DNA of 64,000 bases from Oscillospiraceae bacterium. GTDB taxonomy: Bacteria; Bacillota; Clostridia; Oscillospirales; Oscillospiraceae. The notes beneath the pieces are model-generated. The model ran no database searches, had not been told where the DNA came from, and worked only from the letters and a program-made list of their open reading frames with translations. Below are positions 1 to 12,455 of this stretch, piece by piece. Both the position numbers and the translations under genes were made by a program. The stretch lies in NCBI GenBank assembly GCA_017430455.1, contig JAFRMX010000009.1, forward strand, positions 1-64,000, written 5' to 3'. The first letter of the stretch is position 1, and each line of letters opens with the position of its first letter.

Positions 1-222
1 GTCTATGGCGTCGGCGTGTTTGTTGACAATCACAGTGTGCAGCCAGCCTGTCGTGGAATGAAATCCGGCGTCGGCGGGCGTAAATAAGCTGCGCTTCTCC
101 TCGAAGGAGTTGCGCAGCTTCCACCAGTTCTCGGCCTGTATCACGCGCTTTTCCAGCTTCTGTTTCGCGCTTTTGTACCTGCCAAGCGTGCTGTTGAGTT
201 TATTAAGTTGTTCTTTAGTCAT
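1..222 (-). CDS. Phage portal protein, N-terminal part (cut by window edge)
   Basis: This is the first 74 codons of a reading frame that continues past the left edge. Portal proteins form the dodecameric ring at one capsid vertex through which DNA is packaged. The visible residues begin MTKEQLNKLNSTLGRYKSAK and contain a WWKLRNSFEE stretch and a TGWLHTVIVNKHADAID stretch, which resembles the N-terminus of SPP1-gp6-like portals. It lies just downstream of the terminase large subunit on the same strand, the usual packaging order. The ATG at 220-222 follows an AGAAAGG ribosome site and comes straight after a repeat array. Only the N-terminus is visible, so the portal subfamily is not determined. 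Confidence 0.75.
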   Translation of the reverse strand, partial: MTKEQLNKLNSTLGRYKSAKQKLEKRVIQAENWWKLRNSFEEKRSLFTPADAGFHSTTGWLHTVIVNKHADAID

Positions 223-232
223 AACCTTTCTT

Positions 233-361
233 CTCACTCACTGTGCACTGTGCCCTGTGCACTTTGCACTTAACTCTGCCCTGTGCCCTGTGCACTTTGC
301 ACTTAACTCTGCCCTGTGCCCTGTGAACTTACTGTTCACTGTACTCTGTACACTGTTCACT
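233..361. repeat. Heptamer repeat array A (CACTGTG/CACTGTR family)
   Basis: A degenerate array with 7-bp periodicity (CACTGTG, CACTGTA, CACTGTT variants) fills the terminase-portal junction. Part of it is a perfect 33-bp tandem duplication (251-283 and 284-316) containing TGCCCTGTGCACTTTGCAC. Units contain self-complementary GTGCAC and TGTACA cores, so the transcript could fold extensively. The terminase stop codon at 357-359 falls inside the array. The same family recurs at four other junctions up to 7.6 kb and I did not find it elsewhere in the window. Confidence 0.85.
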
Positions 362-1715
362 TTTTCCCGAGCGGGTCATTGAACATCGGCCTTCGGATAA
401 CGATCGGCCGAACCGGCAGTATCGGATAAGCCATACAGGCGTATCTCCATTCGTCGGCAATGTGGTCCTCGCCGTCAGTGTCCAGATCCTCAGGTCGGTA
501 AGCCGAATACTGCAGCAGGGGAATGGTCCTTATGAATTCCTTGCAGTTGTCGAATACATAGAACCTCGCCCGGTCGTTCTCGTCCAGTTGAAGGCGGTAA
601 TGGCACTGCATCCAGCCGGGTATCCTGTCGTTTACTCCTTTCAAAAAGAAGAGCCCGTATTTGGCGGCGGTATCTGCGATCGACTCGCCCCGGCTTCCGT
701 CCCATATGCTCGGGTCGGCCACGCCTTCGATCTTCCTGTCTTTGAGCCAGGGGTGCGATTGTTCTATCTCGGCGATCTCCCTGAACTGCTGGTCAGGCGA
801 CATCCGGACTCCTTCATTCGGCTGCCCTGTACAGCCGTAGTATTCGAGTATCCTGTACATGGTCCCGTCCCTCGAGAGAGCGGTCCATCCACAGGAAAAG
901 GGGTGGTGATAGCCGAAGTCGTATGATCTGATGATCTTCCAGTATTTCTTCTCTCCGGTATTTAAGTCGAAGGGCTCGATCACATGCTTTTTTATCAGGA
1001 AATCCTCGAAAAACTGCCCTTCGTATACGTCCCAGTTTCCGTAGAGCCAGGCGTCCCTCAGCTTGGGCGGCAGCGCTTCCAGCTGCCTGACGTAATCGGG
1101 CTGCGCCTTCATTAAAGCCTCGTTATCCGTGACCAGAGACTGAATAAATGAATAGTTGTTTGGATCTTCGTTATCGAGATAACGTTGCTCTATAAACAGG
1201 CGTTTGGCCCAGTTGTGCCCCTCTCCGCCCGGGTTCATCGTGTAACAGACTCTCTTCGGGAAAGGATTGACTCCTCTTACGCAGGCGCTGAGCTTCTGGA
1301 GCCTCGCTTCGCTCTGCTGGGTGGCCTCGTCGATAAAGAGAACATCCACCTCAATGCCCTGGAATCGGTCGGCGTCCTTGTCCGTATCGCAATAGCGGAA
1401 CAGGATCTTGCTGTCGTTGGGAAACGAGATGAATTTCTTCTGGTCGTTGTAATTCGCGAGCCTCTTTCCGGGGTCCTCCTGATAGCATTTGAGCATCTTT
1501 ATGAGCGGCTCTATGTGGTTGTCCCAGAGCTCGGGGTAGGTCTTTCGGACTATCAGTACTTTTATTCCGGGGTACTTATAGCAGAGCAGTACGGCTTTGT
1601 TCCGTACTGCCCAGCTTTTCCCGCCTCCGCGGGCTCCTCCGTAGCCGATGTACTTGTGCGTGTCGAGCATGAAAAGCCTCTGTTTCTCGCTCGGCCTTTC
1701 CAGTATCAGTTCCAT
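357..1715 (-). CDS. terL: Phage terminase large subunit
   Basis: The 452-residue protein is the ATP-driven DNA packaging motor and nuclease of a tailed phage. The Walker A motif GGARGGGKS is near residue 27 and the Walker B motif VDVLFIDEA near residue 124, followed by a C-terminal nuclease-type half with conserved acidic positions (SYDFGYHH, EGVADPSIWD). The length is typical for the family. The ATG at 1713-1715 has no clear Shine-Dalgarno sequence because a repeat array (1719-1752) lies directly upstream. It follows small phage genes and precedes the portal gene, so it heads the packaging module. The frame is intact; the family call is firm. Confidence 0.93.
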   Translation of the reverse strand: MELILERPSEKQRLFMLDTHKYIGYGGARGGGKSWAVRNKAVLLCYKYPGIKVLIVRKTYPELWDNHIEPLIKMLKCYQEDPGKRLANYNDQKKFISFPNDSKILFRYCDTDKDADRFQGIEVDVLFIDEATQQSEARLQKLSACVRGVNPFPKRVCYTMNPGGEGHNWAKRLFIEQRYLDNEDPNNYSFIQSLVTDNEALMKAQPDYVRQLEALPPKLRDAWLYGNWDVYEGQFFEDFLIKKHVIEPFDLNTGEKKYWKIIRSYDFGYHHPFSCGWTALSRDGTMYRILEYYGCTGQPNEGVRMSPDQQFREIAEIEQSHPWLKDRKIEGVADPSIWDGSRGESIADTAAKYGLFFLKGVNDRIPGWMQCHYRLQLDENDRARFYVFDNCKEFIRTIPLLQYSAYRPEDLDTDGEDHIADEWRYACMAYPILPVRPIVIRRPMFNDPLGKK

Positions 1716-1718
1716 TCT

Positions 1719-1752
1719 TCACTGTGCACTGTGCACTGTGTCCTGTGCACTT
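1719..1752. repeat. Heptamer repeat array B
   Basis: This short array (about four CACTGTG units plus a TCCTGTGCAC variant) fills the gap between the 95-codon gene ending at 1751 and the terminase start at 1715. It occupies the place where the terminase ribosome-binding site would be expected. Confidence 0.8.
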
Positions 1753-2008
1753 ATTCGCCCAGCTTCTCCAGTTCGGGCGATTCGAACCTTACCGTCAGTT
1801 CCGCAGCTCCCTGGCCGAAGTGCTGCATGACCAGCGGATTCAGGGTGTTTACAACTGCGACAAGATCCTTGAGCGATCTCAGATCCGTGTCCGGAGCGTT
1901 TTTGTTAAGAGCGATGCACTGCTTAGTCATCTTCGAAAGCATGCTTACGCTTGTGCGGACATTTTTGATCTCCGCCGGGGTCCTGCTTCCGGTCTCGTTT
2001 TTATTCAT
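1751..2008 (-). CDS. Small phage protein upstream of terminase
   Basis: An 85-residue protein beginning MNKNETGSRTPAEIKNVRTS. I chose the ATG at 2006-2008 because an AAGGAG site sits just upstream; a longer frame to 2038 has no such support. It overlaps the end of the preceding gene by 8 bp. Its position just before the large terminase gene suggests a small-terminase or packaging accessory role, but I recognise no domain. The C-terminal part is acidic and may be helical. The function is inferred from position only. Confidence 0.65.
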   Translation of the reverse strand: MNKNETGSRTPAEIKNVRTSVSMLSKMTKQCIALNKNAPDTDLRSLKDLVAVVNTLNPLVMQHFGQGAAELTVRFESPELEKLGE

Positions 2009-2429
2009 CGGACTCCTTATCAGAAACACTGCTCTCAATGAGCATCATGCCTTTTTCCAGCATTCTGAGAACTTCAATGCTGCTGCAGCCCTCCAGCTCC
2101 GAGATCTCTCCGGAACACTTACCGTAATAGAAGAAGTCTTCCACAAAATGTCTTACATCTTCATCCTGTATGGTTCCGATCCGTTCCCAGGCAGACTCAA
2201 GATCTGTATCAAGGGCCTGTATTTCAGCCCTTATCCCTTTAATGGCATCATTAAGTTTTAAAACATCGCGTGACCAGGCATTGAGATCTTCAGTTCCTAA
2301 GATGTTCATGATCTTTCTTCTGCTGAGCCTTTTATTCAGCTGGTCATTCAGGTCCAGGAATGATTCAAGCAGCACGTCGACCCTCTTGCGGGCATTTCTT
2401 GTCTGCATTAGATATTCGATATCTGTCAT
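2001..2429 (-). CDS. Phage regulator-like protein, possible sigma-4/ArpU-type
   Basis: The 142-residue protein has an N-terminal helical region rich in charged residues and a C-terminal segment (DVRHFVEDFFYYGKCSGEIS, then SSIEVLRMLEKGMMLIE). That layout resembles the helix-turn-helix end of phage late-transcription regulators (RinA/ArpU/DUF1492 type), which commonly lie just before the packaging genes. Its start overlaps the stop of the preceding replication-type gene by 4 bp (ATGA), so they are translationally coupled. The family assignment is tentative because the motif match is by eye. Confidence 0.5.
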   Translation of the reverse strand: MTDIEYLMQTRNARKRVDVLLESFLDLNDQLNKRLSRRKIMNILGTEDLNAWSRDVLKLNDAIKGIRAEIQALDTDLESAWERIGTIQDEDVRHFVEDFFYYGKCSGEISELEGCSSIEVLRMLEKGMMLIESSVSDKESDE

Positions 2430-2926
2430 ATCTCTCTAGCCCTCACAGTCTTCTCATAGCTGCAGAGAGCGCTCTGCCAGTTTCTGATCTTGCCCTTCTT
2501 GCCGTACCAGTCGCGGCTGTCGTAGTAGGCGTAGAATTCTTCAGGGTCGGTGATAAAGTGCTTCTCTGTGATAAAAGCCCTGATCTCATCGAGTGAAGGC
2601 GTTACAAAAGCATCGTCGTTTACATCGATGACCGCGCGGTCTCTTGCAATGAGCCCGAGCTCGTCGAAGACCAACAGAGCCTGAGATACGGTCCTTAAGG
2701 AGAAGCAGCCCAGTCTCTTCTGGATGTTTATGACATCATAGGGGATATAGCAGTCGGTCTCGGGAGGCCAGGGCGCATTCTCGCCGTAGTGCCTGTTGTA
2801 TAAAAGCGTATAGAGTGCTATATAGTTTCGCCCGTCCGGCAGAGCACTCAGCTGCTCTGTCGTCTTATGGTCAAGACCTCTGGGCGTGAGATCCAGCCAG
2901 TACTTTGCAATCGGTGTGTTGTTCAT
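2426..2926 (-). CDS. Phage replication-type protein with C-terminal FYxYY...WYGKKGKIRNW motif
   Basis: The 166-residue protein starts MNNTPIAKYWLDLTPRGLDH and is probably a winged-helix replisome organiser or early regulator of a phage. The middle part (NIQKRLGCFSLRTVSQALLV) looks like a helix-turn-helix. The C-terminal segment EEFYAYYDSRDWYGKKGKIR-NWQ is a motif I associate with phage replication initiators and DnaD-like proteins of Firmicutes. The next gene upstream has a related C-terminal motif, so the two share a module. Start at 2926, with AAAGGAT about 10 nt upstream. Confidence 0.6.
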   Translation of the reverse strand: MNNTPIAKYWLDLTPRGLDHKTTEQLSALPDGRNYIALYTLLYNRHYGENAPWPPETDCYIPYDVINIQKRLGCFSLRTVSQALLVFDELGLIARDRAVIDVNDDAFVTPSLDEIRAFITEKHFITDPEEFYAYYDSRDWYGKKGKIRNWQSALCSYEKTVRAREI

Positions 2927-2951
2927 GGTCTTATGATCCTTTCATTATCAT

Positions 2952-3506
2952 CTATTGGTTTTTGTTATTAAGTATTGCCTTGATTTCATCTTTTGACAGG
3001 AATGCTGTGCTGCCGGCATTGGATGAATTGCTTTTCCCGGAATCCATATGGGCCCAGTAATCGACAAGTGCCTGCCAGTTTGCAACCGGCTTTCCGTTTA
3101 CTCTCCATCCCATTGCCTCATAGTATTTAAAGAAGGCTGTCGGATCGACAGAGTATCTTTTCCGTGTGACATATTTTTCGACTTCACTTTTTGTGGGAAG
3201 TGTGTTCCCCTCATACTCATTCTCATAATCAGCCTCATTCTCTATCTCATCCTCATTCTCTTTCTCGTTAATTTCACTGAACATTTCGGACTTTGACAGA
3301 CGATAGGCCGCTTGCCTTCTGCCTGAATCGATCGTGGGTTTTACAAGATCGAATCCGAAGGCTGCAGTTTTGTTAAGATCCTTCGGTTTTTTTTCAAAAA
3401 GCGCGTATTCCATTAGCGCAGTTATGAAAGGCTCCCGGCTGCTTTTGCTCAGTTTCATATAAGCATCATAATAAGACCGGTAGAACGTAAACTGTTTTCT
3501 CTGCAT
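2952..3506 (-). CDS. DUF6291-like phage replication protein
   Basis: The 184-residue protein has an N-terminal domain (FTFYRSYYDAYMKLSKSSRE, then TALMEYALFEKKP) typical of a small phage domain annotated as DUF6291. An acidic low-complexity linker (NEKENEDEIENEADYENEYE) follows. The C-terminal part (DPTAFFKYYEAMGWRVNGKP, then NWQALVDYW) is related to the end of the neighbouring 166-residue protein. The pairing suggests a DNA-replication role for both. The start overlaps the stop of the upstream gene by one base. Confidence 0.65.
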   Translation of the reverse strand: MQRKQFTFYRSYYDAYMKLSKSSREPFITALMEYALFEKKPKDLNKTAAFGFDLVKPTIDSGRRQAAYRLSKSEMFSEINEKENEDEIENEADYENEYEGNTLPTKSEVEKYVTRKRYSVDPTAFFKYYEAMGWRVNGKPVANWQALVDYWAHMDSGKSNSSNAGSTAFLSKDEIKAILNNKNQ

Positions 3507-3730
3507 TACTGCTCTGTATCCCTGATCCCGTATTTCTCATACGCAGCCTTTGCAAAGACCGGGTCACTCATAATTCTGCGTACGAAGTCTTTCTGCAGGA
3601 TGTACCCGATAACGTTTTCCTCAAATCCGCGCGGTTCTTCCGCGTTGGGAGGATACAAAGCCAGGGACTTAAGCTTGCTGAGACGGGTCATTTCGTTTAT
3701 CAGAAACTTCCGGTACCCGCTCTGAGTCAT
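3506..3730 (-). CDS. Small hypothetical phage protein
   Basis: A 74-residue protein beginning MTQSGYRKFLINEMTRLSKL. I do not recognise the family. It is basic at the N-terminus, has no membrane segment, and is followed at once by the DUF6291-like gene (one-base overlap, TAATG), so they share an operon. A good AAGGAGAG ribosome site precedes the ATG at 3728-3730, which supports it as a real gene. Confidence 0.6.
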   Translation of the reverse strand: MTQSGYRKFLINEMTRLSKLKSLALYPPNAEEPRGFEENVIGYILQKDFVRRIMSDPVFAKAAYEKYGIRDTEQ

Positions 3731-3848
3731 CTGTACGGATCTCTCCTTTCTTAAGTTTTATATTAAGGACCAACACTGATCCCTTGTTGAGCATTGTCGG
3801 ATCTTTTTGTTCCTCACTATACGGACAGAAAAATCGCGAAATACAACC

Positions 3849-4256
3849 TCAGGTCAGAAACTTTTTTAAATTTTTTATTGCTCTTTCAAGCTGCCTTGAT
3901 ACAGCCTGCTGAGTGATACCAAGCTCTTCAGCAACTTCATTCTGTGTTTTTCTCTCATAAAATATTTTTCTTACTATGAAGCGTGAGCGCTCATCGAGCC
4001 CGTCAAGAGCCTCCGGGAGCCTTTCCAGCATTGTCCTGCGCCAGACCTCCGGCCCGGTAGTTCCGGTCACAATGTCTTTATCGCTGATTTCAGAGCCCTC
4101 GTAATCCAGAGCTTCAATATGGTAGTGTCTGCGGCTTTCTTTTTTGTCATTGGCCTGTTCGGCCCTGTCTTCTCTTTTGAGGATCTCTTCAATTTCCCCG
4201 GATACTTCGACTTCGGTCTTTTCTCCCGTCACGGAGATGTAGGTGTAGTTTTTCAT
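3849..4256 (-). CDS. Sigma-70 region 4-type transcription factor
   Basis: The 135-residue protein has a C-terminal sigma region 4 domain: LDERSRFIVRKIFYERKTQN, then EVAEELGITQQAVSRQLERA, a clear helix-turn-helix of the RNA polymerase sigma family. No region 2 is visible, so it resembles phage regulators that act as sigma-like activators, not a full sigma factor. I chose the internal ATG at 4254-4256 because AAAAGGAG lies just upstream; a longer frame to 4313 would begin within the terminator-side DNA. It probably controls the early or late genes of this prophage segment. Confidence 0.8.
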   Translation of the reverse strand: MKNYTYISVTGEKTEVEVSGEIEEILKREDRAEQANDKKESRRHYHIEALDYEGSEISDKDIVTGTTGPEVWRRTMLERLPEALDGLDERSRFIVRKIFYERKTQNEVAEELGITQQAVSRQLERAIKNLKKFLT

Positions 4257-4446
4257 GTTTTTCTCCTTTTCGTTGTTCCCGAACCGGAGATCCGCATGAA
4301 AAAAGCGCGGCAAAGCAGCCGGAACGGGATTATTTCTCGTTTCAGCGCCCTGACCGTGCTCGTGGGTCGGCGTATATTTACTTTTCCGCCGGTTCAGCCC
4401 GAGCCGCTTCTGTACGTGAAGCGGACTTTCCCGGCGGTATTAAACA

Positions 4447-4524
4447 AAAAAAGGGGGCCGGAACCGCGGTTTCCCGCGAGTTTCCGACCCCCTTTGGTCC
4501 TTCGCAATACCACTTCGTATTGCG
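4447..4524. terminator. Two adjacent hairpins between sigma-like gene and small ORF
   Basis: The first hairpin has arms AAAGGGGG and CCCCCTTT at its base with inner CCGGAA/TTTCCG pairing (4447-4495) and flanking A and T runs, so it could terminate in either direction. The second has arms CGCAATAC (4503-4510) and GTATTGCG (4517-4524). Together they isolate the lexA-like transcript from the downstream phage operon. Confidence 0.7.
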
Positions 4525-4540
4525 GTTACTTTAATTAAAT

Positions 4541-4750
4541 TTAAGCGGCAGTGTGCGGATAGAGCTTTTTCATCGTGACCTTGTATATCACAAGGCCGTC
4601 CTTGCCCTGTCTGATCTCCAGATGCTCGAAGTCTCCGCCCTTCAGCTTCAGAGTCTTCGCAAGAGCTTCGAGCTCCTCGTGGCCGCGCCTTTTATCGTTG
4701 AGCCTTTGCTGCTCCTTGCTGAAATCGATGATATCTGCAGTTTTTTTCAT
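4541..4750 (-). CDS. Small hypothetical protein following lexA-like gene
   Basis: A 69-residue protein beginning MKKTADIIDFSKEQQRLNDK, with a charged helical first half and a possible beta-rich end (LVIYKVTMKKLYPHTAA). I do not recognise it. It starts 3 bp after the LexA-like gene, whose stop codon lies in the ribosome site (TTGAGGAG), so the two are co-transcribed and probably translationally coupled. Coupling suggests a role linked to the repressor switch, but nothing in the sequence states one. Confidence 0.6.
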   Translation of the reverse strand: MKKTADIIDFSKEQQRLNDKRRGHEELEALAKTLKLKGGDFEHLEIRQGKDGLVIYKVTMKKLYPHTAA

Positions 4751-4752
4751 TT

Positions 4753-5358
4753 CTATCTCCTCAATTTTTTAAATACGAATACCGCTACGCCCTGAATAAT
4801 GCACTGCTTAACATATATGTCTTCCATGTAATCGTTTTCAGGGTGGAGGATCACGCGCCTGTTTTCGTCGTCCCGGTAAAAACGCTTGAGCGTCGCCTCG
4901 TCCTCGATCAGAGCTACGACGATATCGCCGGGGTCAGCGTAATCCTGTCTTTTTATTAAAACCATGTCTCCGTCTTCGATGCCGGCGTTTATCATGGAAT
5001 TGCCGCTGGCATTCAGAATGAAAAAGTCTCCGCTGCCGAAGAGCGAAACGGGCAGCTTCACGAACTCCGCGATATTCTCCTCCGCGTACTTCGGGACTCC
5101 GCAGGCGATATCGCTGTAGAGCACGGCGGCTTTCGAATACTCGTAGAGCCTGCTAATCTCGTCTCTGGATCTGTTGACCCGGATGGAGGCGAGCCCGCTC
5201 TCTTTTTTCAGCTCGTTTAAATACCTGTTGACTGTGGAAAGGGAGAGCCCCGTCGCTTCGGAAATAGTTTTCTGGGTGGGATTGGTACCGTATTCCCAGG
5301 CCCATTCGTCCATAAAATCTTCGATAATTTTAAAGGTTTCCGATCTCTTGCTCTGCAT
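4753..5358 (-). CDS. LexA/S24-family repressor with self-cleavage domain
   Basis: The 201-residue protein starts MQSKRSETFKIIEDFMDEWA and has a LexA-type winged helix (PTQKTISEATGLSLSTVNRY) followed by an S24 peptidase domain. The Cys-Gly cleavage site is in SDIACGVPKY, the nucleophile Ser in NASGNSMI, and the general-base Lys in DEATLKRFY. I chose the ATG at 5356-5358 because AGGAGG lies just upstream; the longer frame to 5427 lacks one. It could be the host SOS repressor or the prophage repressor. Its position opposite the WYL gene, beside phage genes, favours a prophage switch responsive to DNA damage. It shares an operon with the small gene downstream. Confidence 0.85.
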   Translation of the reverse strand: MQSKRSETFKIIEDFMDEWAWEYGTNPTQKTISEATGLSLSTVNRYLNELKKESGLASIRVNRSRDEISRLYEYSKAAVLYSDIACGVPKYAEENIAEFVKLPVSLFGSGDFFILNASGNSMINAGIEDGDMVLIKRQDYADPGDIVVALIEDEATLKRFYRDDENRRVILHPENDYMEDIYVKQCIIQGVAVFVFKKLRR

Positions 5359-5394
5359 AAGCCCTCCTGTATGAAAATTTAAAATGTCATTTAG

Positions 5395-5454
5395 GTTGAA
5401 TTCAACTTGCATTTCGAAATTTATCACGGAAAGACATGAAATGCAACAGCATTT
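5395..5454. promoter_or_regulatory. Palindrome cluster in the divergent lexA-like/WYL control region
   Basis: Three dyad symmetries lie upstream of the repressor start: GTTGAATTCAAC (5395-5406, perfect), ATTTCGAAAT (5411-5420, perfect) and AAATGC-AACA-GCATTT (5439-5454, perfect 6-bp arms). None matches the CGAAC-N4-GTTCG SOS box. They are candidate operators for the adjacent repressor or for the WYL regulator; binding is inference. Confidence 0.5.
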
Positions 5455-5567
5455 TTCTATCTGACATACCTGTTTACGTTTACCTGCAAATGCTTTGTAA
5501 CTTTTAGTCTTTACGGGACAAAAATCGGTAGTATACTTAAGATGTAAAAAGCTCCGGAGGCTGTTTT

Positions 5568-6572
5568 ATGGAAAACAAAGTCAAGATAAAGCTTCTCAGG
5601 ATCTACGAGATCCTCAGGAACAACACGGACGAGCATCACATGATGACGACCTATGAGCTCATAGCGGCTCTCGCCCAGGACAAGATCAAAGCGGATCACC
5701 GTTCGGTAAAGTCCGACATAGAGACTCTGAATGAATTCGGCTACGAGATAATGTGCGAGAAGATCGGCAATCAGAACTGGTACTATGTGGCGGACAGGCT
5801 TTTCTCGGACGCCGAGATAAAAATGCTGATAGACGCGGTGCAGGCCGCGAACTTTATTCCTGAGGGAAAAACGGATGAGCTGACAAGGAAGCTCGCGCAC
5901 CTCAGCGGTCTGAAAAACCGTACTTTAAAGGCGAAGAACCTGATCTGCTACAATGTCAAGAAACACTCCAACGAGAACATATGGCTGATAGTCGAAACGA
6001 TCACGGAGGCTCTCGTAAGGAACAGGAAGATCTTTTTCCGGTACTACAGGATCGACGAGAACAAAAATCTGTATACGACGCATCCGGACGGATACGTTAC
6101 GGATCCTGTCGCTCTTGTATATGATGCAGACAATTATTATCTCGTGACCTACAACGAGAAGTACGACAGGATGGTAAATTACCGCGTCGACAGAATGAAG
6201 GACTGTTCCGTTCTCGAAGAGCCTGCGCATGAAAAGGCGGTCATATCGAGAAAGAACCTGCACTCATACAAAAAGGAATCCTTCAAGATGTACAACGGCG
6301 CGATCAGATCCGTAACGCTAGTGTTCGATAAGGAGCTTGTTCCCTCTATTGTAGATAAGTTCGGCGAGAAGGTCATAATAAAGAAGAGTCCGGACGGACG
6401 CTGCTTCATAACGGAAGACATAAAGACCGGCCCGACCTTCTACAGCTGGGTATTCGGCGCAGGAAAGAAGATGGAGATCGCGGAGCCCGCAGACATCCGC
6501 GAAGAATATCTGGGCATGTGCCGCGAAGTCATTGCTTCCAGTGTACAACGTACAGTGAACAGTGAACAGTGA
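5568..6572 (+). CDS. WYL-domain transcriptional regulator
   Basis: The 334-residue protein has an N-terminal winged helix (IKLLRIYEILRNNTDEHHMM) and a central WYL domain (LVRNRKIFFRYYRIDENKNL, then HPDGYVTDPVALVYDADNYY, LVTYN). WYL proteins sense nucleic-acid ligands and regulate defence, phage and DNA-damage genes. The start has GGAGG upstream. The last residues, SSVQRTVNSEQ, are encoded by the heptamer repeat, so the repeat has supplied the end of the coding region and the stop codon. It diverges from the LexA-like gene. Confidence 0.85.
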   Translation: MENKVKIKLLRIYEILRNNTDEHHMMTTYELIAALAQDKIKADHRSVKSDIETLNEFGYEIMCEKIGNQNWYYVADRLFSDAEIKMLIDAVQAANFIPEGKTDELTRKLAHLSGLKNRTLKAKNLICYNVKKHSNENIWLIVETITEALVRNRKIFFRYYRIDENKNLYTTHPDGYVTDPVALVYDADNYYLVTYNEKYDRMVNYRVDRMKDCSVLEEPAHEKAVISRKNLHSYKKESFKMYNGAIRSVTLVFDKELVPSIVDKFGEKVIIKKSPDGRCFITEDIKTGPTFYSWVFGAGKKMEIAEPADIREEYLGMCREVIASSVQRTVNSEQ

Positions 6573-6578
6573 ACAGTA
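6540..6578. repeat. Heptamer repeat array C, inside the end of the WYL gene
   Basis: Units GTACAGTGAACAGTGAACAG are the reverse-complement form of the same family. The array covers the last codons and stop of the WYL gene and ends just before the AGAGG ribosome site of the next gene. Confidence 0.8.
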
Positions 6579-6592
6579 AAGAGGTGAACGAG

Positions 6593-6967
6593 ATGGAGAA
6601 TGAAAGAAAAAGCCCGCTGACAGATCAGTCAATGGATTTTGCAGTGCGGATCGTGAATCTGTACAAATATCTGCGCGACAGCAAATACGAAACCGTTATA
6701 TCCAAGCAGCTGCTTAGAAGCGGAACATCGATAGGCGCTAATGTAAGAGAAGGATCATATGCACAGTCCAAAGCTGATTTCCGTACAAAAATGAACATAG
6801 CGCTGAAAGAAGCCAATGAAACGGATTACTGGATAGAACTGCTTTATAAGACTGAATACATATCTGAGAATGAATATAAAAGCTTGAAGGAGGATTGCCG
6901 GTCGCTGCTGCGTATGCTGATATCGACAGTCAAGAAGACCAGCGAACCCAAATCTCAATTGTTGTAA
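6593..6967 (+). CDS. Four-helix-bundle protein (S23/TIGR02436 family)
   Basis: The 124-residue protein carries the family hallmarks LRSGTSIGANVREGSYAQSK and MNIALKEANETDYWIELLYK. These proteins form pentameric four-helix bundles; some act as the accessory subunit (Avd) of diversity-generating retroelements, others are of unknown role. No reverse transcriptase or template repeat is visible nearby, so a retroelement role is not supported here. I chose ATG 6593 because AGAGG lies upstream; a GTG at 6569 falls within the repeat. Confidence 0.85.
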   Translation: MENERKSPLTDQSMDFAVRIVNLYKYLRDSKYETVISKQLLRSGTSIGANVREGSYAQSKADFRTKMNIALKEANETDYWIELLYKTEYISENEYKSLKEDCRSLLRMLISTVKKTSEPKSQLL

Positions 6968-6989
6968 ATAAAAATAAAAATAAAGGAGG

Positions 6990-7075
6990 AACTGTACGCT
7001 GTACACTAACTGTGCCCTGTGCACTGTGCATTGTGCACTTACTGTTCACTGTACGCTGTACACTGTACACTGAAT
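6990..7075. repeat. Heptamer repeat array D, between SD and ssb start
   Basis: The array of CACTGTG/CACTGTA units fills the 90 nt between a perfect AAAGGAGG (6982-6989) and the ssb ATG at 7080. A segment of about 58 nt, from GTGCCCTGTGCACTGTGCAT onward, is nearly identical to part of array E, showing duplication or exchange between sites. The flank ends CACTGAATTACG before ATG. Confidence 0.85.
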
Positions 7076-7079
7076 TACG

Positions 7080-7478
7080 ATGTTAAACTGTGTAACTCTA
7101 ATGGGAAGAATGACAAAGGATCATGAGCTCAGGTACACCCAGTCGCAGACCCCAGTCGCCACGTTTACGCTTGCAGTCGACAGGGATTACAAAAAAGGCG
7201 AGGAAAAGCAGACAGACTTTATAGACTGCGTCGCCTGGAAAAGCACAGCCGAATTTGTATCCCGGAGCTTTTCAAAAGGCATGCTCTGCGTAGTCGAAGG
7301 AAGGCTGCAGATACGCGCCTGGGAAGACGCGGCCGGAAATAAACGCAGAAACGCGGAGGTAGTCGTGGAGAACATCTATTACGGAGCGTCGAAGCCGAAA
7401 GAAGAGATGGAGAAGATGTCCGGGGAGGATCCGTTTAAGAGCATATCGCCGGAGGACGACGGCGACCTGCCGTTCTGA
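7080..7478 (+). CDS. ssb: Single-stranded DNA-binding protein
   Basis: The 132-residue OB-fold protein starts MLNCVTLMGRMTKDHELRYT and contains FIDCVAWKSTAEFVSRSFSK and VEGRLQIRAWED, all SSB hallmarks. It ends in the acidic tip DDGDLPF that recruits replication and repair partners. It is shorter than typical chromosomal SSB, as phage and accessory copies often are. The only strong ribosome site lies 90 nt upstream, separated from the ATG by repeat array D. It is followed by another SD-plus-array junction. Confidence 0.95.
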   Translation: MLNCVTLMGRMTKDHELRYTQSQTPVATFTLAVDRDYKKGEEKQTDFIDCVAWKSTAEFVSRSFSKGMLCVVEGRLQIRAWEDAAGNKRRNAEVVVENIYYGASKPKEEMEKMSGEDPFKSISPEDDGDLPF

Positions 7479-7486
7479 GAAAGGAG

Positions 7487-7592
7487 TAACTGTGCACTGT
7501 GCACTGTGAACTGTGAACTCATCCGTGCCCTGTGCACTGTGCATTGTGCACTTACTGTTCACTGTACACTGTACACTGTACACTTTACACTA
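7487..7592. repeat. Heptamer repeat array E, between SD and HTH gene start
   Basis: About 105 nt of CACTGTG, GAACTGT and CACTGTA units lie between AAAGGAG (7480-7486) and the ATG at 7600. The arrangement (SD, TAACTGTGCACTG..., CACTAAATTATC, ATG) parallels array D. Confidence 0.85.
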
Positions 7593-7599
7593 AATTATC

Positions 7600-7824
7600 A
7601 TGAACATGATAGAGAAAGTCCATTATTTCGCGGGGAAAAAAGGGGTCACCGTGAAAGAGCTTGCAAAAGCGCTGGATATAAATCCCCAGCTGCTGGTGCT
7701 GAGGGAGAACTCAAAAGGAAATCTCAGCTTGAGAAATATAACTAAGATATGCAATTATCTCAGCCTGGACCTTGTCTATTTTTACAGCTTCAGCCCGACG
7801 GAATTTGAGGACCTGAGCGCGTAA
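7600..7824 (+). CDS. Small helix-turn-helix (Cro/CI-like) protein
   Basis: The 74-residue protein begins MNMIEKVHYFAGKKGVTVKE and contains LAKALDINPQLLVLRENSKG and LSLRNITKICNYLSLDLVYF, a short Xre-like helix-turn-helix layout. It is probably a phage-type DNA-binding regulator. ATGs at 7600 and 7606 are both possible; neither has a close ribosome site because array E intervenes. It is the last gene of the plus-strand prophage-side operon. Confidence 0.65.
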   Translation: MNMIEKVHYFAGKKGVTVKELAKALDINPQLLVLRENSKGNLSLRNITKICNYLSLDLVYFYSFSPTEFEDLSA

Positions 7825-7831
7825 GCCACCG

Positions 7832-7870
7832 GTCATTGCGAGCTGATTTTAATCAGCGTGGCAATCCGTG
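7832..7870. repeat. REP-like element
   Basis: GTCATTGCGAG, then a CTGATTTTAATCAG inner stem, then GTGGCAATCCG. It is one copy of a family that recurs through 7.8-37.3 kb. Confidence 0.8.
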
Positions 7871-7917
7871 ATCCGTATATACCCGCACATTTATTGAAAA
7901 GTGCAAAAAAATAACAG

Positions 7918-7937
7918 CGGTACAGGAAACTGTACCG
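7918..7937. other. Perfect hairpin CGGTACAG-GAAA-CTGTACCG
   Basis: Eight-bp arms with a GAAA loop. A related hairpin (AGCGGTATAG...CTGTACCGCT, with GGAAAC before the right arm) occurs at 22076-22109, and a weaker relative near 12895-12935. It lacks a T run, so it is more likely a repeat than a terminator. Confidence 0.6.
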
Positions 7938-8101
7938 ATTGAAGATATAAATGGCTTTTGAGAGGGTTATTTCAGCTTAAGGAACTGGAGCCGTTGACTG
8001 AGAAAAGACTTGATGAAATGGAGATAAATGCAATGCGTCTTTATAAATACAACGATTCTCCGGATGTACACTTAGAATTCATTTGGCAGGATTATGAATA
8101 A
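7936..8101 (+). pseudogene. Possible 3' remnant of an unrecognised gene
   Basis: An open frame without a usable upstream start ends at TAA 8099-8101; its last part reads LEPLTEKRLDEMEINAMRLY and continues to IWQDYE. The protein-like composition suggests a decayed 3' end. An ATG at 8018 would give only 28 codons. The rest of 7825-8154 holds the REP element and hairpin above and nothing else I can support. Confidence 0.3.
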
Positions 8102-8154
8102 TACGAATAGATATTATTAAAGGGATAATCTGAAATTCCAGGGAAGTTGACTTT

Positions 8155-9390
8155 TTATTGATATATATCTTCCTCGGGTTCCGGTAAAAAAACCGTGGAG
8201 AAAAACCAAAGGAGCGGTGAAAGGCAGCACAAGGCAAGTGCTGCCTTCTGCGTGAAATTAACCGTCAAATAATCATATATTACCCCAATCAAAGCAGAAC
8301 CCAGGTTTGAGCTTAACATGATTAACGAAGTCCCTGCAGCCACCAAAGGCGGAGTGATATCCGGCAATTTCCACAATTGGCTCATTGCAACCGGAACATA
8401 TGCAAATGAACTGAATCCTGCCAAAAAGAACAGGATACAAAGTGCGATCAGATTATCCGTTAACAGCGTAGCTCCATAGAATAACGGCAGCAATGCTCCC
8501 CAGCCGCATATAATAAGTTTATCGCGATGAATCAGACGCGTTAATGGAGCCGCCGCCAAAGTAGCCGCTACTGAACCAATCGGTATCATCCCGACTGCCA
8601 AGCCTGCTGAAGAATAATTCAGCGCTGTATGGTCAAGTGCATATGAGGGCCAAAAGCTGTTGAACGCTACCCATATCATAGCCGCACCGGGCCAGCCTAA
8701 TGCCAGAAGTCTAACGGTTTTACGGCGTATGGCAAGAGCAAAAAAACGGATATTTGAATCGCCGTTTTTTATCCGGCAATCTTTAATGTCCCGATAAAAA
8801 CAGAACCAAATAATCGCTATCAGACTGGCTGCCAGCAGGCAAAAGCCGGACGCTCTGCGCCAGGAAAGAAATATAGAGAGCACAAGCGGGGCAAAAAAGG
8901 TTCCCATCATATGCCCGAGATTTGAAGAAAACTCCTGTGCCGAATTAATCCCCAGAATTTTTTTCTGCGGAACCCATTCTCCTTTCAGCATCTGAACTGC
9001 TCCGCCGAGGGAACAGATATGAAAAGCGAGGAGCATACGGCCGAGGACCAGCTGCCAAACACTCGATGCAATTGAGTGACACAAACATCCGCCGGCAAGG
9101 CAGAGAAAAGACAGCCCCATGCTGACCTTCGGATGAAGGCGCACTGCAACAGCTGCCGCAGGCAGCTGGGCGATCAGCAGCGTGAAAAAAGAGACGCTGC
9201 TCAGCAATCCCGCGCAGCTGTTCCCCGCAAGCATGTCTTCTTTCAACATAGGCAGCATCATGCCGAAACCGAAAGACAGATAATTACATACAATGAGAGA
9301 TAAAAAAACACAGACAAATGCAAGCTTCCCGGTGGGCAAAAGTACACCGGGATTTCTTATATCTTCATATTGTTTTTTGTTCTGTTCCAT
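8155..9390 (-). CDS. MFS transporter
   Basis: The 411-residue protein has about 12 hydrophobic segments and the layout of a major facilitator superfamily carrier of the cyanate/nitrate-like (NarK/CynX) type. The first helix is near residues 23-45 (LAFVCVFLSLIVCNYLSFGF); a cytoplasmic loop with basic residues separates the halves near residues 200-225. The substrate cannot be told from sequence. It is convergent with or isolated from its neighbours, with its own upstream region, and lies next to the first hydrolase gene with which it shares a divergent promoter region. Confidence 0.85.
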   Translation of the reverse strand: MEQNKKQYEDIRNPGVLLPTGKLAFVCVFLSLIVCNYLSFGFGMMLPMLKEDMLAGNSCAGLLSSVSFFTLLIAQLPAAAVAVRLHPKVSMGLSFLCLAGGCLCHSIASSVWQLVLGRMLLAFHICSLGGAVQMLKGEWVPQKKILGINSAQEFSSNLGHMMGTFFAPLVLSIFLSWRRASGFCLLAASLIAIIWFCFYRDIKDCRIKNGDSNIRFFALAIRRKTVRLLALGWPGAAMIWVAFNSFWPSYALDHTALNYSSAGLAVGMIPIGSVAATLAAAPLTRLIHRDKLIICGWGALLPLFYGATLLTDNLIALCILFFLAGFSSFAYVPVAMSQLWKLPDITPPLVAAGTSLIMLSSNLGSALIGVIYDYLTVNFTQKAALALCCLSPLLWFFSTVFLPEPEEDIYQ

Positions 9391-9500
9391 TCTTTCTTCT
9401 ATCAGCCGTCCTGGAATTACACCCGTATATCTTTAAATACAATTATATCATAGCTCGCATTTATTTCAACAAATTCAACTTAAAGGAGCTATAATACGTC

Positions 9501-9529
9501 TTGACGATTATATATTTATGATATATACT
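9501..9529 (+). promoter_or_regulatory. Promoter of hydrolase gene 1
   Basis: TTGACG (9501-9506) and TATACT (9524-9529) are 17 bp apart, an SigA-type promoter, about 48 bp before the hydrolase ATG. The spacer is part of a TATATA-rich imperfect dyad. Confidence 0.65.
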
Positions 9530-9577
9530 TAAAATACATTCTATAGCATAAATAAATTAAAAGGAGGTTCTGTAAAA

Positions 9578-11788
9578 ATGAAATTCCTGAAAACCCCTGC
9601 GGGCTGCAAAAAGATGATTGTTCTATTCATCTGTCTAATTCTTATTTTCAGCTTTGCAGCCAGTATGCTCCAGTCATCCAGCGGAAAAGTCAGTATTTCT
9701 AATGTGAAATTTGATGCCAGAGGCGCGGTGCAAGATGCCGACCTGTACATGCCTGTCGGCACCAATTCACACAGCTCTCTGCCCTGCGTGATTCTATCCC
9801 ACGGCGGCGGCTGCACCAAAGACACCATGACCGGCTATGCTTCCGAGCTTGCCAGACGCGGATTTGTCGTACTGAATGTCAGCTCATACGGTTCCGGCCT
9901 TTCAGAGCAGCCAATGTTTGATGAAGATGAAATCGGAGCATCATTGGAAGAACTGAATGTAGACGTCAGGGACACCAGCAGCGTCGAGGGGCAGGCCAAT
10001 GCTTCCATTGCCGTCAAGGCGCAGGGCATGTGGGACGCAATCAACTATGTCCGTACTCTGACCTTTGTGGACCAGTCAAACATAGTGATCGCCGGGCACT
10101 CCCAGGGCGGTTACCGTGTCTGTTACGCCGCACTGCATGACTGTCCCTTCCTTAGCTTCAACGATGCAATGATCAACTTTATGTATGATGAGTTCGGCAT
10201 CGCTTTTAAGGAAGAGGAAATCAGCAAAGATGCTGCTGAACTCGCAAAAGAGCATCTGAACGATGATCAGCTCCTTTACTTCCAGGCAAAATACGATGAA
10301 ACAAAAGAATACTATGATACCCGAGTCAAAGGCGTGGTATCTATAGGGAATACCGTCACTGGCGTTCCTGAAGCATTCAGCAAACAGAAGGTTATTGTGG
10401 CCGGTTATGAAGTTGAACGTTTCATCCAGACAAACCTTGCATTTCTCTGCGGTCAGTGGGACCACAACTTCATGTTCCTGGATCCGACTGTGGCTGCAAC
10501 TCAGTACTTCCAGACGGGGGACAGCATGCCGATTGACACTTGGGTAGCAGTTGATTCCAATGGCGATACCGGCACAATTCTCGGTGATTTCAATACAGAA
10601 TCCGTCGTCAGCAGCGATGCTCTTGCAGAAGCCATTGAAAACCGCTGTGCACGAGTCTATATGGCTCCGGAGAAGATTACCCATTCCAGTGAATTCCTTT
10701 CAAAGCGCGCTGTCTCTGATATGGTTCAGTACGCGGCACAGATTACCGGCTATAACAACGGACCGCTCGACGGAGCGAACAATGCAATTAAACCGGACAA
10801 CATCATTTGGCTGAACCGCGAATTCTGCAACTTTTTTGCCATGATCGCTATGCTCGGCCTTGCCGTTTCCATGCTCGGGCTTCTGAGCTGCGAGAAAGGT
10901 TTTGAGAAGCTCACATATGTTCCGAACGAGGAGAAACTCATTGCTTACAATAAGAAAGAGGTTGCGGCATTCTATATTATCGCAGTTCTGATCCTCTGCC
11001 AGGTTACATGGCTCTCGAACAACAGTATGAAGATGATGGCCAATCCTCTCGTAGTACTGCTGCCCTCCAACAAATTCTACCCGTTAGATAAAACGTCCTG
11101 TTTCTGCTATGTGTATCTGTGCTGGGGAGCTATCCTTCTGGCGGTTCTGATGGCAGTATTCTGCTTCTACAACAAAAAGAAATACGGGAAAACCGGACTT
11201 GAACAGCTCGGGATCCGTGTTGGCTGGAAGGCCTTCTTTAAAGCACTTCTCGCTGCTCTTATAGTCTTTCTCACCTGTTATGCTTCAGAAGTCGTCATCC
11301 GGTACATCTTCCATCAGGATTACAGGCTTTGGATGTGCATATTTACAGACATGAAGCTTTATCACTGGACACAGGCCCTGCGTTATCTGCCTTGGCTTGT
11401 GGTTCCCTATTTTGTGTTCTGCTCTGTCATCAATATGATTCCGGACAAGAAAGGGCGCAAGCTCTTTACAGCTGTGCTTATCTCCGTATTGATTGGCTCT
11501 GCCGGCGTCATTCTCAACCACTTTGTACATGTCACCGGCATGTACACCGGTTCGGACGCTGAGCACTTCTTTGTAAAGCTGATCAGTGAAGGTTCTATCT
11601 GCGGCGGCATGCTGATCTTTGTACCCATTACAGTGTTTATTGCAAAATTCACGTATAAGCAGACCGGATCTGTTTGGACAGGTGTTTGGATCAATTCCTT
11701 CCTGAATGCGTGGTTGTGGGTCTCCGCGATTTCCAGCACAAATGTCTATATGGGCACTACATTCGCGGAAAAATTCTTAGGCTTCTAA
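9578..11788 (+). CDS. Membrane-anchored alpha/beta hydrolase, paralogue 1
   Basis: The 736-residue protein has an N-terminal membrane anchor (residues 13-31), an alpha/beta-hydrolase domain (about 40-400) and a C-terminal domain with about eight membrane helices. The nucleophile elbow is GHSQGG with Ser near 175; an oxyanion-type SHGGG lies near 74-78; candidate His is in ITHSSEF. The hydrolase domain should face outside. Two paralogues in this window (29979-32027 and 37448-39298) share the order of domains, an ELARRGF motif and a D(F/Y)R(I/L)W motif in the membrane part. Good AAAGGAGG ribosome site. A MarR-type gene follows. The substrate is unknown; ester, lipid or peptidic targets are all possible. 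Confidence 0.8.
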   Translation: MKFLKTPAGCKKMIVLFICLILIFSFAASMLQSSSGKVSISNVKFDARGAVQDADLYMPVGTNSHSSLPCVILSHGGGCTKDTMTGYASELARRGFVVLNVSSYGSGLSEQPMFDEDEIGASLEELNVDVRDTSSVEGQANASIAVKAQGMWDAINYVRTLTFVDQSNIVIAGHSQGGYRVCYAALHDCPFLSFNDAMINFMYDEFGIAFKEEEISKDAAELAKEHLNDDQLLYFQAKYDETKEYYDTRVKGVVSIGNTVTGVPEAFSKQKVIVAGYEVERFIQTNLAFLCGQWDHNFMFLDPTVAATQYFQTGDSMPIDTWVAVDSNGDTGTILGDFNTESVVSSDALAEAIENRCARVYMAPEKITHSSEFLSKRAVSDMVQYAAQITGYNNGPLDGANNAIKPDNIIWLNREFCNFFAMIAMLGLAVSMLGLLSCEKGFEKLTYVPNEEKLIAYNKKEVAAFYIIAVLILCQVTWLSNNSMKMMANPLVVLLPSNKFYPLDKTSCFCYVYLCWGAILLAVLMAVFCFYNKKKYGKTGLEQLGIRVGWKAFFKALLAALIVFLTCYASEVVIRYIFHQDYRLWMCIFTDMKLYHWTQALRYLPWLVVPYFVFCSVINMIPDKKGRKLFTAVLISVLIGSAGVILNHFVHVTGMYTGSDAEHFFVKLISEGSICGGMLIFVPITVFIAKFTYKQTGSVWTGVWINSFLNAWLWVSAISSTNVYMGTTFAEKFLGF

Positions 11789-11808
11789 TTTTCTGGAGTT
11801 TCTCCTTT

Positions 11809-11839
11809 GATGCGGGTGGCGATAAAACCCACCCGCATC
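11809..11839 (+). terminator. Terminator after hydrolase 1
   Basis: GATGCGGGTGG and CCACCCGCATC form a perfect 11-bp stem with a short loop, followed by a T-rich stretch. Confidence 0.85.
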
Positions 11840-11878
11840 TTCGTTTCTATTCAACACACATCAAGAATATCATTTCTA

Positions 11879-11907
11879 TTGAATTATTCCGGACTCTCCA
11901 TTATAAT
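11879..11907 (+). promoter_or_regulatory. Promoter of MarR gene 1
   Basis: TTGAAT (11879-11884) and TATAAT (11902-11907) with a 17-bp spacer, 45 bp before the regulator start. This shows that the regulator is transcribed separately from the hydrolase upstream. Confidence 0.7.
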
Positions 11908-11951
11908 GTACACTCAAATAGGTCAATTATTCAAATGAAAGGTTAGGATCC

Positions 11952-12455
11952 ATGGAAACCGAATGGATGGGAAGATACAGAAGCTTGATCGCCTCACTTG
12001 TCAGACATGTGAATGTGGCCAGTACAGGCAACTTTGAGCGAGCCGACTTTGGGAACGGCATTCTGCTACGCCCTATCTCATGGCAAGCTTTGGAGTATTC
12101 CATTGAACATATCGATCATACAGATAGTATGTCAGATGTGGCGCGGACTCTTGGGATTACTCAGAGCACGTTCTCCAAGCTGGCGAAAGAGCTTGTTTCA
12201 TACGGATTTGTAGAGAAGTATGTAGCCACCAACAATAGGAAAAACGTGATCCTCCGCCCGACGGATAAAGGAATTAGATTTTACCATCAATATAACGACA
12301 ACAGGAACAGAGGACTCTTTACCGATTTTATGGCAGAACTCGAAACCTTCTCTGATGAGGAAATTGAACGGTTCACACACGCAATTGACACATTGACAAA
12401 TTCTCTTCCTCCGGCATCCAAACAAAATCCGGTAACACTCGTAAAAAAAGAATAA
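11952..12455 (+). CDS. MarR-type regulator 1, partner of hydrolase 1
   Basis: The 167-residue winged-helix protein starts METEWMGRYRSLIASLVRHV. The recognition region is MSDVARTLGITQSTFSKLAK, then ELVSYGFVEKY and NNRKNVILRPTDKG as the wing. Two other regulators in this window share the same N-terminal W(M/L)G(R/K)(H/Y)R signature, the S-x-FSK recognition motif and an N-K-K/N-N-x-K-N wing, and each also accompanies a membrane hydrolase. It is likely to regulate the hydrolase gene and perhaps itself; the effector is unknown. Terminated by a strong hairpin. Confidence 0.8.
   Translation: METEWMGRYRSLIASLVRHVNVASTGNFERADFGNGILLRPISWQALEYSIEHIDHTDSMSDVARTLGITQSTFSKLAKELVSYGFVEKYVATNNRKNVILRPTDKGIRFYHQYNDNRNRGLFTDFMAELETFSDEEIERFTHAIDTLTNSLPPASKQNPVTLVKKE

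What the first reader, a model, noticed from the sequence alone, without database searches (positions are those of the whole stretch)
233..7592. Heptamer repeat family at five prophage gene junctions
Seen: degenerate CACTGTG/CACTGTA heptamers at 233-361, 1719-1752, 6540-6578, 6990-7075 and 7487-7592, each at a gene junction and none found elsewhere in the window. Units have self-complementary GTGCAC and TGTACA cores. A 33-bp tandem duplication is in array A. Arrays D and E share about 58 nearly identical bases. Known: short tandem heptamer repeats (STRR) have been described in cyanobacteria; I do not recall a description in clostridial prophages. Inference: a copying or recombination process places this unit at gene boundaries.
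Basis: partly seen in the sequence, partly recalled or inferred. Interest (0 to 1): 0.75.

Follow-up and report, generated by a model that had tools for sequence, protein, structure and literature searches.

The report
Seven-base-armed gene cassettes in phages
Arrays of a seven-base repeat sit between the genes of a bacterial virus, and two of them flank, as mirror images, one small four-helix-bundle gene; the same mirror-image layout surrounds relatives of that gene in many bacteria and phages, so the scattered arrays are likely arms or scars of a little-known, probably mobile cassette.

Summary
The arrays are real, with a 7-base period, and none lies elsewhere in the window. The layout recurs. 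Among 80 relatives from many bacteria, 43 of 95 gaps beside the gene hold 7-periodic arrays, against 13 of 191 other gaps in the same loci. Flanks are inverted copies in 55 of 77 loci (controls 3 of 142) and in 8 of 9 phage loci. Units differ between elements, but upstream arms are purine-rich (35 of 37) and downstream arms rarely so (4 of 40). Sister prophages differ in array presence at 7 of 12 compared sites; one lacks array C and the gene. I read the solo arrays as arms or scars of a selfish, IVS-like cassette that slip and recombine and so reshuffle phage genes. Movement and the protein's role are inferred. Against: 34 array-bearing viral contigs and 80 relatives of the phage show no such gene in the stretches held, and the inverted layout is weak in the host's own family (3 of 14).

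The parts
233..361 (-). Array A, left-arm type on the coding strand, between terminase (its TGA stop lies in the array) and portal; absent from both sister prophages
357..1715 (-). Terminase large subunit gene
   Evidence: Pfam and PHROGs
1719..1752 (-). Array B, left-arm type, starting at the TAA of a 95-aa gene and ending before the terminase start; present in all three prophages; the holin gene found beside it in the two sisters is missing here
5568..6572 (+). WYL/WCX-domain regulator gene; its TGA stop lies in array C
6540..6578 (+). Array C, left arm of the four-helix-bundle cassette (ACAGTGA along the + strand)
6593..6967 (+). Four-helix-bundle gene, PF05635 (23S_rRNA_IVP), ATG start with GAGGTG in front
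6984..6991 (+). SD-like AAAGGAGG, about 88 nt before the SSB start, with array D in between
6992..7075 (+). Array D, right arm of the cassette (CACTGTG along the + strand), directly before the SSB start
7080..7478 (+). Single-strand binding protein gene; two copies with an array between them in the sister prophage
7481..7486 (+). SD-like AAGGAG, about 113 nt before the HTH start, with array E in between
7487..7592 (+). Array E, right-arm type, before the HTH gene
7600..7824 (+). Small helix-turn-helix gene behind array E

Best explanation
Arrays C and D flank a four-helix-bundle (PF05635) gene as inverted heptamer arms, and the other arrays are likely solo arms or scars of the same selfish cassette, which probably spreads among gene junctions of this phage. 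Shown: the anatomy (left arm, gene, right arm, in the direction of the neighbouring genes), its recurrence with different unit sequences in bacteria and phages, and the presence or absence of arrays and of two such genes between close relatives. Inferred: the cassette is moved or copied by way of its arms; the protein acts on the arms as nucleic acid; loss of the gene between the arms leaves solo arrays. Supported by comparison but not seen as events: arrays grow and shrink by units of seven, and recombination between arrays duplicates or removes the genes between them (SSB, holin). The surviving arrays probably lie at stop codons, before start codons or in protein linkers because they are tolerated there.
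For: PF05635 gene between inverted arms: inverted score 22 against at most 10 in 30 shuffles. Relatives (best 80 of 286): 43 of 95 neighbouring gaps against 13 of 191 other gaps are 7-periodic; inverted flanks in 55 of 77, controls 3 of 142; phylum sample 15 of 25, controls 0 of 24; phage contigs 8 of 9, controls 0 of 15. Arm polarity: purine-rich in 35 of 37 upstream and 4 of 40 downstream arms. Presence or absence at 7 of 12 sites between sister prophages, including array C plus gene. The genome's second such gene is absent from a same-genus genome that keeps a short array there. Shared composite blocks between non-allelic arrays. Array and gene co-occur by genome: 6 of 11 against 67 of 387, p 0.007; without the window's own genome 5 of 10, p 0.02.
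Against: No PF05635 gene in the held stretches of 34 viral contigs with this unit, nor of 80 relatives of the terminase, 8 of which carry arrays; 5 of 11 genomes with the unit lack the gene. In the host family only 3 of 14 scored loci show the inverted layout, and the genome's second gene scores 12 against 11 in shuffles. Inverted matches with another locus's flank reach the cut-off in 60 of 385 pairings, and direct matches in 15 of 77 same-locus pairs, partly because arms everywhere are low in complexity. No transposase, reverse transcriptase or target duplication was identified; only RVT_1 was searched. No new insertion was observed, and the direction (gain or loss) is not settled at any single site.
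Confidence: 0.62

Rival explanations
1. Ordinary heptanucleotide microsatellites: replication slippage grows them wherever selection tolerates them, and the four-helix-bundle gene merely lands in or near such arrays.
For: Length changes in units of seven; arrays without the gene in many phages; earlier authors proposed slippage for heptamers (PMC4679880 introduction).
Against: Does not predict inverted arms on the two sides, constant polarity, excess beside this gene over other gaps of the same loci, or 69-99 bp composite blocks shared by unlinked sites.
Confidence: 0.2
2. The arrays are regulatory leader or processing sequences of the phage operons, kept because they set translation or RNA cleavage; the gene is a regulator that binds them.
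For: D and E stand between an SD-like sequence and the start codon; a Coxiella IVS and Beggiatoaceae heptamers also stand before start codons (PMC4990558; PMC4679880); A and E fold better than shuffles.
Against: 7 of 12 sites differ between sister prophages; arrays lie inside reading frames; C and D do not fold better than shuffles.
Confidence: 0.1
3. A reverse-transcriptase process, as in diversity-generating retroelements or telomerase-like repeat addition, lays the arrays down, with the four-helix-bundle protein as an Avd-like helper.
For: PF05635 is described as resembling Avd (PMC10053308, passages); several left-type arrays overlap or abut the stop codon of the gene in front, as if primed there.
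Against: No RVT_1 match in the genome, which is about 95% complete.
Confidence: 0.05

Closest known systems
Intervening sequences (IVS) of 23S rRNA with an S23/PF05635 reading frame, e.g. that of Coxiella burnetii (PMC4990558, passages read)
   Same: Same protein family; ends that are complementary; tandem heptamers between an SD-like sequence and the gene's start codon, with strain-variable number; regarded there as a selfish element
   Different: Lies in rRNA helices; that paper describes heptamers in one organism only; here the cassette and solo arrays lie among phage protein genes with another unit
Heptamer repeats of cyanobacteria (STRR) and of Beggiatoaceae, TAACTGA (PMC4679880: abstract, introduction, sections 10 and 24, passages)
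   Same: Intergenic tandem heptamers, often near start codons, with 7-nt length changes between strains
   Different: The parts read do not mention this gene, and the words S23, helix bundle and reverse transcriptase do not occur in the main text
GGGAATC heptamers of Xanthomonas and GGGGA(C/T)T of Nostoc (PMC4692102, passages read)
   Same: Degenerate heptamer arrays, about 70 inverted pairs per Xanthomonas genome
   Different: Studied as G-quadruplexes; no four-helix-bundle gene mentioned (0 occurrences of four-helix and S23)
Avd proteins of diversity-generating retroelements (PMC10053308, passages read)
   Same: Related four-helix-bundle fold according to that paper
   Different: No reverse transcriptase in this genome; repeats are short tandem heptamers, not template and variable repeats
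REP/BIME sequences with RAYT transposases, and MITEs (recalled, not from a call)
   Same: Short dispersed repeats thought to be moved in trans
   Different: Their ends have a fixed sequence; here elements share a 7-base period, inversion and polarity but not the unit sequence; RAYT was not searched

Membership tests
rRNA intervening sequence (IVS) | Encodes an S23/PF05635 protein | tested here: met
   104.5 bits
rRNA intervening sequence (IVS) | Bordered by complementary sequences | tested here: met
   Arrays C and D, inverted score 22 against at most 10 in 30 shuffles
rRNA intervening sequence (IVS) | Lies within an rRNA gene | tested here: not met
   Lies between WYL and SSB genes of a prophage; no Rfam match in window 1-12000
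rRNA intervening sequence (IVS) | Excised from the transcript by RNase III | not testable with these tools
   needs RNA work
Heptanucleotide tandem repeats (STRR-like) | Tandem units of seven bases | tested here: met
Heptanucleotide tandem repeats (STRR-like) | Intergenic location in cyanobacteria (as recalled for STRR) | tested here: not met
Diversity-generating retroelement | Reverse transcriptase | tested here: not met
   No RVT_1 in the genome
Diversity-generating retroelement | Template and variable repeats | not tested
   -
MITE | Terminal inverted repeats | tested here: met
   As inverted arrays, not as a fixed sequence
MITE | Target-site duplication of constant length | tested here: inconclusive
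   No clear duplication in the filled/empty pairs seen
REP/RAYT | Associated Y1-type transposase | not tested

The most novel reading that the evidence does not exclude
Heptamer-armed four-helix-bundle cassettes are a bacteria-wide class of mobile element whose ends share no sequence, only a 7-base period, inversion and purine polarity; rRNA IVSs, and at least part of the unexplained heptamer arrays of cyanobacteria, Beggiatoaceae, xanthomonads and phages, are its inserted copies and scars, and its pentameric protein works by gripping the repeat at seven bases per subunit.
Probability: 0.4. Interest if true: 0.9.

Novelty: new variant of a known kind. Interest (0 to 1): 0.78.

Why it matters
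PF05635 proteins are widespread and, as far as I know (recalled), without an agreed function, and heptamer arrays have been reported piecemeal without an agreed origin. Tying the two together as gene and arms of one cassette would give both a common, testable explanation. It also suggests how related prophages come to carry new protein linkers, to lack genes such as holin, and to carry duplicated genes such as SSB between repeats.

Tried and rejected
Pattern of variable bases: GGGANTN in Xanthomonas (PMC4692102) resembles the window's ACAGNGN, but over the arms of relatives the two most variable positions stand at distance 1, 2 and 3 in 13, 16 and 24 cases, so this was dropped.

Stop codons in all three frames as the reason for a period of seven: upstream arms close all frames in 30 of 37 cases, but reshuffled units do so at 75%, so this is not evidence by itself.

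Genome specificity of units: three unit patterns searched in ten genomes. L101's unit has many places in its own genome and L076's lies on two further contigs, but L095's only on its own contig, and other genomes also have hits (for L095's unit far more hits in another genome than in its own; for L076's unit the backwards control exceeded the pattern in one genome). Weak, and not used as support.

RNA folding as the arrays' function: mixed (z -0.15 for D, -2.96 for E, +0.28 for C, -4.62 for A). Insertion into tRNA terminators: seen by eye in part of the host family, but of the 80 distant loci only L072 has a tRNA within 400 bases of the gene; kept as a side observation. A search of viral contigs with the window's protein alone found no relative; an alignment found nine. 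The copies C18:1-99 and C9:275-373 (99 of 99 identical) lie at contig ends, so their identity may be partly assembly.

'Not in print' rests on paper searches of an open-access library only.
Full report
WHAT IS THERE. The doubled unit has 47 matches in the window against 2.4 expected, and 46 lie in or overlap the arrays. Lag-7 autocorrelation is 0.66-0.81 in all five and no shuffle of 1000 reaches it. A lag scan of the window finds six stretches at period 7, two at 14, one at 9 and none at the other periods from 4 to 13. In the 2.09-Mb genome the arrays lie only on three contigs, C8 (the window), C9 and C18. C18 and C9 carry a second, related prophage; its terminase is 97% identical to the window's.

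THE MISSED PIECE. Between arrays C and D lies an intact gene of family PF05635, named after a protein encoded in intervening sequences of 23S rRNA. Array C reads ACAGTGA along the gene's strand and array D reads CACTGTG, so the gene is flanked by inverted heptamer arms; the inverted match of its flanks scores 22, against at most 10 in 30 shuffles. Array C holds the stop codon of the WYL gene and array A that of the terminase. Arrays D and E lie between an SD-like sequence and the start codons of SSB and of an HTH gene.

IT RECURS. I fetched the best 80 of 286 relatives found in a collection of one genome for each of 84,980 species. Seven-periodic arrays occur within 400 bp upstream in 19 of 80 and downstream in 13 of 79, against 12 of 867 control blocks; periods 4-6 and 8-13 give 0 or 1. 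With intergenic controls it is 43 of 95 gaps beside the gene against 13 of 191 other gaps in the same loci (p 7e-14). The flanks match each other in inverted orientation in 55 of 77 loci (three of 80 had flanks too short); direct matches reach the cut-off in 15 of 77, pairings with another locus's flank in 60 of 385, and points 2.5 kb away in 3 of 142. In 398 genomes of the phylum 73 have the gene; of the 30 fetched loci 25 were scored, and 15 are inverted (direct 7) against 0 of 24 controls. The other five were missed by my local profile; a relaxed rerun scored four of them, three reaching the cut-off. Nine viral contigs with the gene were found, two of them nearly identical: 8 of 9 are inverted, controls 0 of 15. 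Units differ from element to element (GAGAATT, GATAAGG, AATTGAG, GTGAAGA, GTAATGA), but the upstream arm is purine-rich in 35 of 37 cases and the downstream arm in 4 of 40 (90 loci given, counting arms that passed the period filter).

WHERE IT IS WEAK. In the host's own family only 3 of 14 scored loci reach the cut-off (two of 16 were not scored). Several of these sit near tRNA genes or have other repeats. The genome's own second PF05635 gene has heptamer-like repeats on both sides, but its symmetry score (12) is close to shuffles (11).

COMING AND GOING. Three related prophages can be compared: P1 (window), P2 (C18 and C9) and P3 in a same-genus genome (G515; loci L398 and L399). Of 12 array sites comparable in at least two of them, seven differ in presence: array A (P1; P2 and P3 have about 16 bp there); array C with its gene (P1; P3 has an SSB copy there); both arrays around a 73-aa gene behind the capsid gene (P2, not P3); the array behind the small gene upstream of holin (P2, not P3); the linker array of an NlpC/P60-like protein (P2, not P3; domain name recalled from its sequence, not from a call); and a short array in a 617-aa protein (P2, not P3, where another palindromic stretch stands). 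Five are shared: B, D, E, the in-frame array in the ORF between capsid and portal, and the portal end. One further P2 array (C18:11908-11950) was not compared. In P3 one SSB copy has a normally spaced SD and start, and the second has array D between them: an empty and a filled leader side by side. The in-frame array differs by 42 nt, six heptamers, and the ORFs by 14 codons. P1 lacks the holin gene that P2 and P3 have beside array B. At the genome's second PF05635 gene, G515 (98% identical neighbour) lacks the gene and most of the arms but keeps a short array. In Planktothrix plasmids the arrays beside the gene differ by 7 and 21 nt upstream, and by 10 nt downstream in the alignment, which is not a multiple of seven; two nearly identical phage contigs differ by one unit.

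COPYING. Non-allelic arrays share composite blocks, not only units: A with C18:35-102 at 93%, A with C9:251-339 at 90%, C with C18:2015-2057 at 93%, E with C18:46-104 at 83%, and C18:1-99 with C9:275-373 at 100% (the last at contig ends). So blocks were copied or converted between sites. The D/E likeness goes with an SSB-plus-array segment duplicated in P3.

READING. The simplest account is a small cassette (left arm, four-helix-bundle gene, right arm) that enters between genes in their direction of transcription. The solo arrays are arms left behind or copied, which then slip and recombine. On the coding strand A, B and C are of left-arm type and abut or contain the stop of the gene before them; D and E are of right-arm type and stand before start codons. 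Movement and the protein's part in it are inferred. The solved relative 2rld has five chains in its entry; a pentamer gripping seven bases per subunit is my speculation.

AGAINST. None of 34 viral contigs with this unit and none of 80 terminase relatives has a PF05635 gene in the stretch held, though 8 of those 80 carry 17 arrays, the commonest of the periods scanned. By genome the window's unit and the gene co-occur (6 of 11 with the unit against 67 of 387 without; p 0.007, or 5 of 10 and p 0.02 without the window's own), but 5 of 11 lack the gene. No reverse transcriptase family match is in the genome. Whether G515 holds a PF05635 gene elsewhere was not tested; the 36 kb fetched from it hold none by my profile.

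LITERATURE. The one explicit link found is the IVS of Coxiella burnetii: a possible SD followed by tandem GACAGAT heptamers before the S23 reading frame, their number varying by strain, within complementary ends (PMC4990558, passages). Heptamers in Beggiatoaceae and cyanobacteria (PMC4679880: abstract, introduction, sections 10 and 24, passages) and in Xanthomonas and Nostoc (PMC4692102, passages) are described, in what I saw, without this gene. Geobacter metallireducens has further heptanucleotide families (PMC2700814, passages). The Avd likeness of PF05635 is from PMC10053308 (passages). Paper searches listed no paper that I could see stating the general association; I judged most listed papers by title and the start of the abstract only.

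Noticed in passing
L155, L156, L160, L163 (upstream side), L153, L164 (downstream side), phage L383: PF05635 genes of the host family sit next to a tRNA gene and its terminator-like hairpin, with heptamers or a second copy of a terminator arm inside or beside it (in L383 read by eye). It looks like insertion at hairpins, as for IVS in rRNA helices.
   Followed up: partly
C8:124972-125283 of the window's genome (L148:1492-1845, outside the window): A second PF05635 gene with a different repeat (GAATTAA/GAATGAA upstream; about 57-bp composite repeats downstream) between a sugar-dehydratase-like and an aminotransferase-like gene (names recalled from sequence); absent from the same-genus genome G515.
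   Followed up: yes
L399:8697-8842 against L032:6400-6520: At one site in a 617-aa protein, P2 has a heptamer array and P3 an unrelated palindromic stretch (CCTTCCCCC..GGGGGAAGG): one linker site that takes different repeats.
   Followed up: no
L380, L381, L382 (Planktothrix agardhii plasmids): A heptamer-flanked four-helix-bundle gene stands between drmD (DISARM helicase) and a methyltransferase or restriction gene, by the record annotation.
   Followed up: no
window 3210-3266: Another short-period repeat (period 6/18, CTCATT-like) lies inside the ORF at 2952-3506.
   Followed up: no
L032:2889-3650 and L031:17979-18749: Two copies of a secreted, membrane-anchored-looking protein gene, 90% identical, lie near both pieces of the second prophage.
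   Followed up: no
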